A stretch of DNA of 64,000 bases, from the NCBI RefSeq assembly GCF_023586085.1, contig NZ_CP097757.1:124001-188000 (forward strand), given 5' to 3'. Each line of letters begins with the position of its first letter. Within the stretch, counting starts at the first letter, position 1. This DNA comes from Blochmannia endosymbiont of Camponotus sp. Lineage in GTDB: Bacteria > Pseudomonadota > Gammaproteobacteria > Enterobacterales > Enterobacteriaceae. The translations under genes and the position numbers were made by a program. Under the pieces are notes generated by a model that did no database searches, was not told the origin of the DNA, and saw only the letters and a program-made list of their open reading frames with translations. This document shows, one piece after another, positions 40,350 through 45,261 of the stretch.

Positions 40350-40952
40350 ATGAAATATAATTATCATGTTACTTATTTCTTAGTAAGTGTGCCTGAAATT
40401 TGTAAATTACCTGATGGAAAGATGGGTATGGAGGTAGCTTTTGTTGGTTATTCTAATAGCGGAAAATCTAGTGTTATTAATGCTTTAACTTATCAAAAAA
40501 AACTTACTAAAGTTAGTAAAACACCAGGATGTACGAAACTCATTAATTTATTTGAAGTAAAACCGGGTATTCGTCTTATTGATTTTCCTGGTTATGGTTA
40601 TGCTAAAGGTATCAACATAAGAAAAAATTATTGGCATGATGTAGTATGCGAATACTTGAAGAAAAGAGAAAATTTAAAAGGATTGATTTTAATCATGGAT
40701 ATTAGACATCCTATAAAAGATCTAGATCAAAAAATGGTTGAAAGCGCGATTTCTATGAAAGTTCCGGTTTTTACTCTATTAAGTAAATCAGATAAAATTT
40801 CTAGAAATATTTTGAAAGTTACAACTAAAAAAATGATACAGGACATGAATATAAAGTTCGCAACGTGCATACAAGTTGCACCTTTTTCTGCTGTTAAAAA
40901 ACATGGAATAGAATTGTTAAAAATTACTCTTAATCATTGGTTAAAACATTAA
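40350..40952 (+). CDS. engB: Ribosome biogenesis GTP-binding protein EngB (YihA)
   Basis: Essential GTPase for 50S assembly. 200 residues against 210 in E. coli. G1 is GYSNSGKSS, G3 is DFPGYGYA, and the G4-type SKSD lies in LLSKSDK. Convergent with polA as in E. coli; the Spot 42 RNA gene that lies between them there is absent. Confidence 0.96.
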   Translation: MKYNYHVTYFLVSVPEICKLPDGKMGMEVAFVGYSNSGKSSVINALTYQKKLTKVSKTPGCTKLINLFEVKPGIRLIDFPGYGYAKGINIRKNYWHDVVCEYLKKRENLKGLILIMDIRHPIKDLDQKMVESAISMKVPVFTLLSKSDKISRNILKVTTKKMIQDMNIKFATCIQVAPFSAVKKHGIELLKITLNHWLKH

Positions 40953-41109: not shown

Positions 41110-43905
41110 TTAATGTGCTTGCTCCCAATTTTTTCCAATACCGATATCTACTTTTAATGGTACATCAATAATAAAGCATGCTTCCATTAATTTTTTAATT
41201 TGTTTCACAACTGGATCTATGATTTCATGGTGCACTTCAAATACTAATTCATCATGAACCTGCATGATTATACGTGCTGGAATTTCATTTTTTTGCAACC
41301 AATTATCAACAGATATCATTGCTTTTTTAATAATATCAGCAGCACTGCCTTGCATGGGAGCATTGATTGCCGCTCTTTCAGCACTTTTTTTTTGGTAAAT
41401 ATTAGAAGAAAAAATATTTGGCAAATACAATTTTCGACCATCTAATGTAGATACATAGCCATATTTATTGGCATATTCCCGAACATGTTTCATATATCTC
41501 ATGACTCCAGGATACCGTTTAAAATAACGATCTACATACTTTTGCGCCTCTTTACATGTTACTGATAATTGACGTGCTAATCCAAATGCACTCATTCCAT
41601 AAATTAATCCAAAATTGATAGTTTTAGCTTGATGTCTTTGTTCATTGGTTACTAAATGTAATGCAGTTACAAATATTTCAGAAGCTGTTGCAGTATGAAT
41701 ATCTTTTTCAGAAAGAAAATCGTTGATTAATGTGATATCTTGAGATAGGTGCGCCATTATTCTTAATTCTATTTGTGAATAATCTGCAGCTACAATTAAA
41801 AAATTTGTTGGAGCAATAAAAGCTTGACGTATTTTTCTACCGTCATAATTTCTATTCGGAATATTTTGTAAATTTGGGTTAGTAGAAGAAAGACGTCCCG
41901 TAGCAGTTCTAGTTTGATTATACGAGGTATGTACTCGATTTGATTTTTCGTTAATCATAGCGATTAATTTATTGGTATAAGTAGATTTTAATTTAGCTAA
42001 ACTACGATACTGTAAAATAATTTTTGGCATTGGATATTTTTTTGATAATTTTTTTAATACTTCTTCATTGGTTGAAGGAGCGCCGGTAGGTGTTTTTTTT
42101 AAAATTGGCAATTTTTGTTGACTATATAATATTTCCTGTAATTGCTTGGTTGAAGAAAGATTAAAAGAAGTATGTACTAATTGATACGCTTCTAGTTTTA
42201 ATGCATCAAGTCGAGAATCTAATTCTACTGAATGAGCATTAAGTAGTTTTTTATCTATTAATACGCCATAATTTTCGATACGAGTTAATATGGATATTAA
42301 AGGCATTTCTATTTCTTCAAATATTTTTTTTAGCTTATCGTTTGTGTTTATCTTTGGCCATAAAGTATAATGCAGATTGAACAAGGATTTGCTAAATTTA
42401 GCAGCATGTAGAGATTGTGATTGTATATTATGTACGTCTGAGACAATATCATTTTTATGATAATTATTTTTGAAATCTATAACAGCTTTGAATGTATCTT
42501 GATCTAAAAATTTTTTTATATCTTGATAATCGGAAGTACCATACAATATGTATAATTCTAATATAACGTCAAATGCCATACCAACTAAATTTATATTGTA
42601 ACGTTTAAATATAGCGTAACTAAACTTTAAATGTTGTCCAATTTTTTTTATTTCTGAATTTTCTAAAATTGGCTGCAGCGTTGATAGTACTTCTTCAAGA
42701 CATAAAAAATCCTGATGATTATTAATTGAATTAGTTTTTATAGGAATATATGCGCTTTCATTAGGATTTATAGATAAACATATGCTTATGATATTAGCTG
42801 TAGCAGCGTTAAATATATCTGTATGTATGTTAAATATAAATAATTTAGATATTTTAATTTTTTCAATCCAATGATACAGCATGCCAATATCATGTATTAT
42901 TTTGACAACTATTTTTTCTTTGACATAATCTAATAATAAATTATTTTTTTGATATAAAAACGTATTTTTTAAGTGTTGATTTGATAATGGCTTATTTAAA
43001 TATTGATATTTATGTAACCATTTTTTTGATTTTAAATCTATTAACCAATTTTTGAATTCATATCGTTTAAATAATGACGATAAAGCATCAATATTTGCTT
43101 GTTGTATTGATAGTTGATAGACAGATGTGTCCAAAGACACATCTGTTTTGATAGTTGTTAATTTATAAGAAAGAAATGCTATTTCTTTGTTAATCTGTAA
43201 TATATTTTGTATTGATTTAGCGCCTCGTACCTTCAATAGACTAATTCTGTTCAAATTATTATATAATGTTTTTAAATTTCCTATTTTTTTTAACAATATT
43301 TGTGCAGTTTTTTTTCCCACTCCAGGAACTCCAGGAACATTATCAGAGCGATCTCCTATTAACGCTAAATAATCAGCTATCAACGCTGGCGGTATTCCAA
43401 ATTTTCTTTCTACTTCTTTAGGAGTAAATATAATATTTGACATAGTGTTAATAAGAGTTATCGTAGGTGATACTATTTGGGCCATATCTTTATCTCCTGT
43501 ACTAATTAATACGGGATTTCCTGATTGCGCGTAAAACATGGCTAGCGTACCTATAACATCGTCTGCTTCTACATTAGGCACCTGAAGCGTTGGCAATCCC
43601 ATGGCTTGTATTATTTTGCGTAATGGATCTATTTGAGTAGATAGATCTTTAGGGGTTTTGATGCGATTAGCTTTATATTTTTCAAATAAGTTATTACGAA
43701 ATGTTTTTCCAATTGTATCAAAAACAATTACCATATGAACAGGTTGATATCGCGCTAATAGACTTTTTATCATGTTGATTACTCCATATATTACCCATAC
43801 TGGTTCTCCATTACTGGTTTTTAATGGTGGTAACGCATGATATGCGCGATGTATATAAAAAGAACCATCCACTAAAATTATTGGATGATTTATAATTGCA
43901 ATCAT
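41110..43905 (-). CDS. polA: DNA polymerase I, proofreading site substituted
   Basis: 931 residues against 928 in E. coli. The 5' nuclease domain (about 1-290) is intact, with VDGSFY, VEADDVIGTL, STGDKDM and GDRSDNVPG. The polymerase domain (about 550-931) has motif A VAADYSQIELR, motif B INFGLIYGMSAFG and motif C QVHDELVFE. The middle 3'-5' exonuclease fold is still recognisable, but its metal ligands are gone: E. coli D355, E357, D424, Y497 and D501 align with N359, H361, S429, H500 and F504. It should therefore do gap filling and primer removal without proofreading. Confidence 0.97.
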   Translation of the reverse strand: MIAIINHPIILVDGSFYIHRAYHALPPLKTSNGEPVWVIYGVINMIKSLLARYQPVHMVIVFDTIGKTFRNNLFEKYKANRIKTPKDLSTQIDPLRKIIQAMGLPTLQVPNVEADDVIGTLAMFYAQSGNPVLISTGDKDMAQIVSPTITLINTMSNIIFTPKEVERKFGIPPALIADYLALIGDRSDNVPGVPGVGKKTAQILLKKIGNLKTLYNNLNRISLLKVRGAKSIQNILQINKEIAFLSYKLTTIKTDVSLDTSVYQLSIQQANIDALSSLFKRYEFKNWLIDLKSKKWLHKYQYLNKPLSNQHLKNTFLYQKNNLLLDYVKEKIVVKIIHDIGMLYHWIEKIKISKLFIFNIHTDIFNAATANIISICLSINPNESAYIPIKTNSINNHQDFLCLEEVLSTLQPILENSEIKKIGQHLKFSYAIFKRYNINLVGMAFDVILELYILYGTSDYQDIKKFLDQDTFKAVIDFKNNYHKNDIVSDVHNIQSQSLHAAKFSKSLFNLHYTLWPKINTNDKLKKIFEEIEMPLISILTRIENYGVLIDKKLLNAHSVELDSRLDALKLEAYQLVHTSFNLSSTKQLQEILYSQQKLPILKKTPTGAPSTNEEVLKKLSKKYPMPKIILQYRSLAKLKSTYTNKLIAMINEKSNRVHTSYNQTRTATGRLSSTNPNLQNIPNRNYDGRKIRQAFIAPTNFLIVAADYSQIELRIMAHLSQDITLINDFLSEKDIHTATASEIFVTALHLVTNEQRHQAKTINFGLIYGMSAFGLARQLSVTCKEAQKYVDRYFKRYPGVMRYMKHVREYANKYGYVSTLDGRKLYLPNIFSSNIYQKKSAERAAINAPMQGSAADIIKKAMISVDNWLQKNEIPARIIMQVHDELVFEVHHEIIDPVVKQIKKLMEACFIIDVPLKVDIGIGKNWEQAH

Positions 43906-44089: not shown

Positions 44090-44719
44090 TTATGTTTTAT
44101 TTATGAGTAAATTTAATAATTCACAAAATTGTCGTATATAGGCATTTACTGATGATATATCCAACTTGTCGTTTTTTATCATATATTTACCATTGATAAA
44201 TATTGATGGAACCCCTCTCAGATGAAAATTTATTGCTGCCTGTTCTTGATCTAAGACTAAGGATTTTACTAATATACTATCCCAAGTAGTATCAAATTCT
44301 TTTGCATTAACGCCAGATTTAATAAATATTGCACGAATATCGTCTATGGTATGGATAGATTGTTGTTTTTGTATTGCTATAAATAATATGGGACTAATTT
44401 TATTTTCTATTCCTAATACTATCGCCACAGCCCAAGCGTGCGTTAATTGTTTGCCTAAATTACCTAAAAAATTTACATGATATTTATAAAAATTTACGTT
44501 TTTAGGTAGTGTTTGTTTTATATTGTTCGAAATATGATAAATTTGTTCAAACTGATAACAATGTGGACAATAAAAAGAAAAAAACTCTAGTAGTTTAGGA
44601 GCATTATGAATAGGTTTATTTAATCGAATATATTGTTTTCCTTCAACAATTGAAGACGAAATGCTTTTGCATGAAAATATTAAAAAAATTATTATCAAAA
44701 TAAGATGTAATTTTTTCAT
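44090..44719 (-). CDS. dsbA: Periplasmic thiol:disulfide oxidoreductase DsbA
   Basis: Introduces disulfides into exported proteins. ATG 44719 (MKKLHLILI) has the strong ribosome binding site AGGAGG; an ATG 21 bases upstream lacks one. 209 residues. An N-terminal signal peptide (about 1-24) precedes the thioredoxin fold. The active site is CPHC in FFSFYCPHCYQF, and the cis-Pro lies in RGVPSIF. A 33-bp-arm palindrome ends 39 bases upstream of the start, in the probable mRNA leader. Confidence 0.96.
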   Translation of the reverse strand: MKKLHLILIIIFLIFSCKSISSSIVEGKQYIRLNKPIHNAPKLLEFFSFYCPHCYQFEQIYHISNNIKQTLPKNVNFYKYHVNFLGNLGKQLTHAWAVAIVLGIENKISPILFIAIQKQQSIHTIDDIRAIFIKSGVNAKEFDTTWDSILVKSLVLDQEQAAINFHLRGVPSIFINGKYMIKNDKLDISSVNAYIRQFCELLNLLINKT

Positions 44720-45261
44720 ACAACCTCCTAATAATCCCACAAATATTGATTATTAAAATATAGAATATTATTATTAATTAAAATAAAAATATCATTTTTA
44801 TTTTAATTAATAATAATATTCTATATGACTTGTTTGATATGTGATTTTAATTATCATACTAATATTATTTGATATGTATGAGAATTTGTGTGTTTATTAT
44901 AGATTAATAGATTTAATAATTATTATATTAATTAAATGTAATAATAAATAAAAAATATTTTTATAATAATGACTTAATCTTATTAAGACGTTCTCATTAT
45001 TTATATAGGAACTTTAAAAAGTTGAGATTATTTTAGTATTTATATAAATGGTTATAATAGAATAAATACGGGGATAATTTTTAAGGCAGTAATCATCAAT
45101 TACAAAGATATTGTCATATAGGCAATAGAAAGATGTCTATTGAGTATAGAGTAATTTATATTTTATGTATATATGCTATCTTTAATTAAAGAACAGAGTA
45201 ATAGTAATTTTTTGTTATCATAAAGATATGATAGTTCCTACGTTTGTAAAATTATGTTATA
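44720..45261. other. Gene-free stretch between ubiD and dsbA
   Basis: 542 bases with the longest palindrome of the window (44758-44826). E. coli genes between ubiD and dsbA (fre, fadBA, mobAB region) are gone. No ORF or RNA is seen. Confidence 0.6.
44758..44826. repeat. Perfect AT palindrome, 33-bp arms, 3-base loop
   Basis: Arms 44758-44790 and 44794-44826 are exact reverse complements around ATC, with one GC pair in 33. The near edge is 39 bases upstream of the dsbA start. By length alone it cannot be chance. It has no U-tract, so it is not a standard terminator. Confidence 0.95.

What the first reader, a model, noticed from the sequence alone, without database searches (positions are those of the whole stretch)
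42394..42831. DNA polymerase I has lost every catalytic residue of its proofreading site
Seen: the 3'-5' exonuclease fold is still aligned to E. coli, but D355, E357, D424, Y497 and D501 correspond to N359, H361, S429, H500 and F504. Known: D355, E357, D424 and D501 bind the metal ions, and substitutions at these sites abolish exonuclease activity in Klenow fragment. Nuclease and polymerase motifs are intact. Inference: an error-prone Pol I that could raise the mutation rate in this lineage, a different route from endosymbionts that keep only the 5' nuclease domain.
Basis: partly seen in the sequence, partly recalled or inferred. Interest (0 to 1): 0.75.

Follow-up and report, generated by a model that had tools for sequence, protein, structure and literature searches.

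The report
Ant symbiont polymerase without working proofreader
An ant endosymbiont's DNA repair polymerase has kept its shape and its copying and flap-cutting sites but has lost all the residues it would need to proofread, and many related small-genome symbionts seem to have lost the same ability, which makes it look like a common early step in symbiont genome decay and not a quirk of this one.

The parts
41110..43905 (-). polA, DNA polymerase I, 931 aa, full length
   Evidence: ORF; NCBIfam PRK05755.1 1024 bits and TIGR00593; Pfam domains
43036..43905 (-). 5' nuclease (flap endonuclease) domain, about residues 1-290; eight catalytic Asp kept
   Evidence: PF02739 and PF01367; residue table
42916..43035 (-). 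linker, about residues 291-330, low constraint (median dN/dS 0.70)
   Evidence: pLDDT below 50 at 304-329
42331..42915 (-). 3'-5' exonuclease-fold domain, about residues 331-525, catalytic site lost
42829..42831 (-). N359 at the E. coli D355 position
42823..42825 (-). H361 at the E. coli E357 position
42619..42621 (-). S429 at the E. coli D424 position
42406..42408 (-). H500 at the E. coli Y497 position
42394..42396 (-). F504 at the E. coli D501 position
41113..42330 (-). polymerase domain, about residues 526-931; D705, R754, K758, F762, Y766, H881, D882, E883 (E. coli numbers) kept
   Evidence: PF00476 509 bits

Best explanation
This is an ordinary orthologue of bacterial Pol I whose 3'-5' exonuclease domain has become a catalytically dead scaffold. 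The 5' nuclease removes RNA primers and flaps and the polymerase fills the gaps, but a mismatched 3' end can no longer be trimmed by Pol I. The loss came about because Pol I proofreading became dispensable in host-restricted symbionts with small populations: DnaQ still proofreads the replicase, and Pol I copies only short patches. The same activity has been lost several times and early in this family, followed in many lineages by loss of the whole Klenow part, with the 5' nuclease kept longest. Shown: residue losses, conservation elsewhere, constraint on the fold, distribution across the genomes examined. Inferred: lack of activity, dispensability as the cause, symbiotic lifestyle of the unnamed small genomes, and the order of loss (read from a cross-section of genomes).
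For: All four metal ligands and Tyr497 replaced, none relocated. Of 151 family rows, 147 have the polymerase positions and 146 of these read exactly as E. coli (the other has S707T, not an acid ligand); 131 of 151 have all eight 5' nuclease Asp, the other 20 being frames that lack that part wholly or partly. Exonuclease-domain dN/dS median 0.23 against 0.12 (polymerase), 0.17 (5' nuclease), 0.70 (linker) in 12 Blochmannia; fold predicted and matched to Klenow. Family survey, all four ligands kept: 0 of 47 (<=1.05 Mb), 0 of 12 (1.05-2.05 Mb), 3 of 4 (2.05-2.5 Mb), 84 of 84 (>=2.5 Mb). Two broken genes outside that count (G066, G092, both 1.2 Mb) have also lost ligands. DnaQ catalytic residues kept in 59 of 59 genomes, 52 of them at or below 2.0 Mb. 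Intermediates: G074 HEDYD beside G210 DEDYD in one genus; P0030, P0032, P0046, P0048 with one ligand changed. Ten lineages have on average 75% of the four ligands changed against 62% of linker residues (my mean of ten rows), about the level of unconstrained sites. 56 of 61 further small genomes match only the N-terminal part, none beyond residue 377.
Against: No biochemistry. Tree-controlled support is limited: 7 changes on the best tree, 5 forced by starred branches, outgroup not cleanly placed; independent-pair sign test median p 0.0625 on 5 supported pairs. D355 is replaced in 12 of 12 tabulated genomes of 1.1-2.0 Mb, by Asn in 8 (the broken G092 keeps it), which drift explains less easily. 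Symbiosis alone does not suffice: P0044, named Sodalis-like endosymbiont of Proechinophthirus fluctus, is intact, as is P0052 on a 1.87 Mb Sodalis contig (genome sizes not seen), and three family genomes of 2.1-2.2 Mb are intact.
Confidence: 0.85

Rival explanations
1. The loss is adaptive: a Pol I that cannot proofread extends mismatches and bypasses lesions, and so stands in for the translesion polymerases these symbionts have lost, as proposed for H. pylori.
For: No Y-family polymerase in 14 of 14 genus members, found in 6 of 60 genomes searched; no Pol II in 14 of 14, found in 3 of 40. H. pylori Pol I without proofreading does translesion synthesis (PMC3121766, passages). In 1.1-2.0 Mb genomes the five catalytic residues are substituted more often than other invariant exonuclease residues (Mann-Whitney p 0.007; p 0.028 for all genomes up to 2.0 Mb), and D355N recurs (8 of 12).
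Against: The substitution level at the ligands is near that of the linker, so no selection is needed. In Blochmannia itself the ligands do not stand out clearly from other invariant exonuclease residues (p 0.064). G210 lacks both Y-family and Pol II yet keeps the exonuclease site; G076 has a Y-family gene and has lost it. Catalytic residues freed while folding residues stay constrained gives the same pattern.
Confidence: 0.1
2. The exonuclease site still works weakly with other residues or another mechanism.
For: The fold is kept and constrained; D359 is acidic in 25 of 27 rows, and D441 and E445 in 27 of 27.
Against: All four metal positions lack acids in 26 of 27 Blochmannia-type proteins, and no acid near D424 or D501 occurs in more than 11 of 27. 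D441 and E445 are also invariant in the large-genome rows with intact sites and are not metal ligands there (recalled).
Confidence: 0.03
3. Loss follows genome size or AT content mechanically and not symbiotic lifestyle.
For: Sharp split by size within the family.
Against: The 30 best-scoring of 41 genomes of another family (f9; the 30 are 1.8-2.9 Mb) all keep DEDYD, nine of them at or below 2.0 Mb; the other 11 were not read. DnaQ and the other Pol I sites in the small genomes stay intact.
Confidence: 0.07

Closest known systems
Helicobacter pylori DNA polymerase I (HP1470)
   Same: Full-length Pol I, fold thought to be kept, D355, D424 and D501 equivalents missing; purified enzyme lacks proofreading (PMC3121766, passages)
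   Different: Here E357 is lost too; no activity data here; the H. pylori authors argue for selection, here drift is likelier
Exo-inactive PolA1 of Firmicutes and Actinobacteria (Bacillus, Mycobacterium) and Taq Pol I
   Different: Inactivation is described as largely phylum-specific (PMC12926913, passage); here it is scattered inside one family whose examined larger-genome members are all intact
E. coli DNA polymerase I
   Same: Same domain order, 51% identity over the Klenow part, same polymerase and 5' nuclease residues
   Different: Proofreading site intact in E. coli
5'-nuclease-only Pol I of highly reduced symbionts
   Same: Same family; the 5' nuclease is the part kept
   Different: The window's gene still has the polymerase and a folded exonuclease domain

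Membership tests
Bacterial Pol I orthologue (PolA1) | 5' nuclease + 3'-5' exonuclease fold + family A polymerase in one protein | tested here: met
Proofreading-proficient Pol I (DEDDy) | D355, E357, D424, D501 and Y497 present | tested here: not met
   N, H, S, F and H
Exo-inactive Pol I (H. pylori type) | exonuclease metal ligands missing, fold kept | tested here: met
   (fold by prediction)
Exo-inactive Pol I (H. pylori type) | no removal of mismatched 3' ends in vitro | not testable with these tools
   needs purified protein
PolA2 / APEX | lacks the 5' nuclease domain | tested here: not met
   5' nuclease domain present; definition from PMC12926913 passages
5'-nuclease-only symbiont Pol I | polymerase domain absent | tested here: not met
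   PF00476 509 bits

The most novel reading that the evidence does not exclude
In insect symbionts of this family Pol I is dismantled in a fixed order (proofreading first, polymerase second, 5' nuclease last), and the first step is repeatedly favoured by selection, often through the same D355N change, because an exo-dead Pol I takes over lesion bypass once Pol II and the Y-family polymerases are gone.
Probability: 0.12. Interest if true: 0.75.

Novelty: new member of a known kind. Interest (0 to 1): 0.5.

Why it matters
The enzyme itself is one more proofreading-dead Pol I. The useful part is the family-wide pattern: a testable case in which one of three activities of a single protein is lost again and again on the way to small symbiont genomes while the replicase proofreader is kept in all 59 genomes checked. 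A 2026 survey of over 3000 species concluded that Pol I exonuclease inactivation is unrelated to genome size (PMC12926913, passages); inside this one family it is tightly linked to genome reduction, so a bacteria-wide average hides it. It may also serve as an early marker of decay and as a candidate source of lagging-strand mutations.

Tried and rejected
Considered and rejected: alignment slip (two alignments and a structural match agree on the offset); sequencing error (13 of 14 genus members carry full-length genes with losses); relocated ligands; a decaying pseudo-domain (dN/dS 0.23, not near 1); genome size alone.

Led nowhere: the scan of genome contigs with PolA gave no loci. only listed loci. 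One search took wrong open frames because loci were in contig orientation; redone. One search read the wrong DnaQ column (motif index failed); corrected. The family search centred on G054 found only G054. The box held no model coordinates, so distances at the metal site were not measured. Paper searches listed no paper that I could recognise as reporting Pol I proofreading loss in Blochmannia or related insect symbionts; only listings, abstract starts and the passages cited were seen, no supplements, and subscription papers are mostly not held. Passages read without a relevant result: PMC10333215, PMC7042692, PMC3017870, PMC3620526, PMC5437351. The size of the E. coli polA exo- mutator effect was not found in the passages read of PMC6153641, PMC2680738 and PMC11253446; only a second-hand statement in PMC3121766.

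Limits and dropped rows: the 84 large genomes are part of the large ones in the 392-genome sample; many were picked from the top of the similarity list, some by size. Of 154 PolA rows, 4 without exonuclease columns (G005, G066, G092, G217) and 3 of other families were left out of the 147; read piece by piece, G066 and G092 have changed ligands and G217 has no exonuclease match. In 19 of the 59 small-genome rows at least one of the five columns is a gap; among the 40 without gaps 0 keep all four ligands. Genome sizes are rounded to 0.1 Mb; for the 40 large genomes a placeholder size was used, their sizes being 3.8 Mb or more. For split or broken genes only the best-scoring open frame was used. 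G117 had only a sub-cut-off hit for DnaQ and is not among the 59. A strongly diverged Klenow part could have been missed. The free-living comparison for dN/dS used 10 rows and only 11-17 of 45 pairs passed the dS limits in the three domains (exonuclease 0.084, polymerase 0.059, 5' nuclease 0.045; 5 of 45 for the linker).

Full report
What is there. The window encodes one DNA polymerase I, 41110-43905 on the minus strand, 931 aa, a full-length orthologue by NCBIfam and Pfam. Its neighbours are a GTPase with an MMR_HSR1 domain (40350-40952; YihA by name is my inference) and a DsbA-like protein (44090-44740). The genus is Blochmannia: the nearest named proteins are from B. vicinus, B. camponoti, B. 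floridana and B. vafra. The genome is 780,612 bases in one contig.

Observation. Against E. coli Klenow (E 6e-195) the five catalytic positions of the 3'-5' exonuclease read N359, H361, S429, H500, F504. The polymerase positions D705, R754, K758, F762, Y766, H881, D882, E883 and the eight 5' nuclease Asp are kept. In 27 Blochmannia-type proteins, 26 have no acid at any of the four metal positions and one has a single Asp at the E357 position; no acid within 8 residues of D424 or D501 occurs in more than 11 of 27; D359, beside the first motif, is acidic in 25 of 27.

Within the genus. Of 14 genomes, 12 closely related ones have none of the four E. coli ligand letters (G003 has Asp at the 357 position), G006 keeps D355 and D424 but not E357 and D501, and G005 has only a 306-aa 5' nuclease frame. 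So, if G006 is the outer branch as, the full loss is later than its split, and the 5'-nuclease-only state arose in the same genus. MutS is found in 1 of the 14 (G005), Y-family polymerases in 0 of 14, Pol II in 0 of 14, and DnaQ in 14 of 14 with its catalytic residues.

Across the family. I tabulated 147 family genomes whose PolA row has exonuclease columns. All four ligands are kept in 0 of 47 genomes up to 1.05 Mb, 0 of 12 between 1.05 and 2.05 Mb, 3 of 4 between 2.05 and 2.5 Mb, and 84 of 84 at 2.5 Mb or more. The nominal Fisher p is 1e-41, but it ignores kinship. Restricted to the 40 small-genome rows without gaps the count is 0 of 40 (22 with four ligands changed, 10 with three, 7 with two, 1 with one). 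Replacement letters differ among lineages. DnaQ is DEDHD in 59 of 59 genomes, 52 of them at or below 2.0 Mb. In 56 of 61 further small genomes only the N-terminal part matches, none beyond residue 377; 5 have no match. Two genomes with broken polymerase parts (G066, G092) have changed exonuclease ligands too. So no examined genome had an intact exonuclease site together with a broken polymerase part, which is why I infer the order exonuclease, polymerase, 5' nuclease; this is read from a cross-section, not from dated events.

Kinship. On a polymerase-domain tree of 103 rows (quick search, outgroup not cleanly placed) the state changes 7 times, 5 forced by starred branches. Individual residues need 7 to 15 changes, in either direction (D355 10, E357 15, D424 11, Y497 7, D501 7). 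Within-genus contrasts are clear: G210 (2.2 Mb) DEDYD against G074 (1.4 Mb) HEDYD; G362 (3.6 Mb) DEDYD against G417 DKGYD and G084 EENYD. Long AT-rich branches may hide further independent losses. The independent-pairs test goes the expected way in 4.9 of 5 supported pairs on average, median p 0.0625; 8 pairs on all branches.

Size or lifestyle. In another family of the order (f9) 41 genomes matched; the 30 best-scoring, 1.8-2.9 Mb, were read and 30 of 30 are DEDYD, including nine at or below 2.0 Mb. Of 14 stretches from other families of the order, 12 are intact; G054 (1.7 Mb, YDQGQ) and G035 (2.2 Mb, AHDYL) are not. Genome size alone does not predict loss. Not every symbiont has lost the site: P0044, from a louse symbiont by its name, and P0052 (a Sodalis sp.) are intact.

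Drift or selection. In genomes of 1.1-2.0 Mb the ligands are among the most often substituted of the residues invariant in large genomes (D355 1.0, D501 0.83, D424 0.75, E357 0.5, Y497 0.17; other invariant exonuclease residues 0.26 on average; p 0.007 for the five). Over all genomes up to 2.0 Mb p is 0.028, and in Blochmannia alone 0.064. Against a 5.2 Mb relative (L015), ten lineages have about 75% of ligands and 62% of linker residues changed, the level of unconstrained sites. Relaxed selection is enough; the repeated Asn at 355 (8 of 12) is a lead for the adaptive reading.

What is known. H. pylori Pol I lacks D355, D424 and D501, shows no proofreading and does translesion synthesis (PMC3121766, passages). 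That paper also reports others' finding that E. coli Pol I without proofreading is a mutator biased to the lagging strand, Pol I doing 1-2% of lagging-strand synthesis in their model. A 2026 survey (PMC12926913, abstract and passages) found substitutions in the exonuclease motif in about half of Pol I orthologues, by phylum and unrelated to genome size. So the kind is known; this enzyme is a new member. The close link within one family between exonuclease loss and genome reduction is the part I did not find in the searches named under Tried and rejected. Partial polA loss in Cardinium symbionts is reported (PMC12842512, passages).

Verdict. Observation confirmed; 'error-prone enzyme' plausible but unproved; 'different route' and lineage-specific framing not supported.

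Noticed in passing
L070, L074, L079, L098-L106, L108-L112: In 17 genomes (16 small ones and the 2.4 Mb G076) the best two PolA frames are one of 286-326 aa (5' nuclease) and one of 521-648 aa (Klenow part), the break falling near the linker: natural Klenow-like pieces.
   Followed up: partly
G000-G013 (genus): MutS is absent from 13 of 14 genus members and present only in G005, the one that lost the Klenow part.
   Followed up: no
12 tabulated genomes of 1.1-2.0 Mb: D355 is replaced by Asn in 8 of 12, in several places of the tree, more often than D424 (4) or D501 (6).
   Followed up: partly
L214 (G054) and L216 (G035): Two genomes of other families in the order (1.7 and 2.2 Mb) also lost Pol I exonuclease ligands.
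   Followed up: no
L100 (G076, 2.4 Mb): Largest family genome examined with a lost site (DEKYE) and a split polA; it still has a Y-family polymerase gene, so site loss can precede loss of translesion polymerases.
   Followed up: no
P0030, P0032, P0046, P0048: Proteins with a single ligand changed (D355N, D424N, D424Y, E357A), three of them named Sodalis: apparent first steps of the loss.
   Followed up: partly
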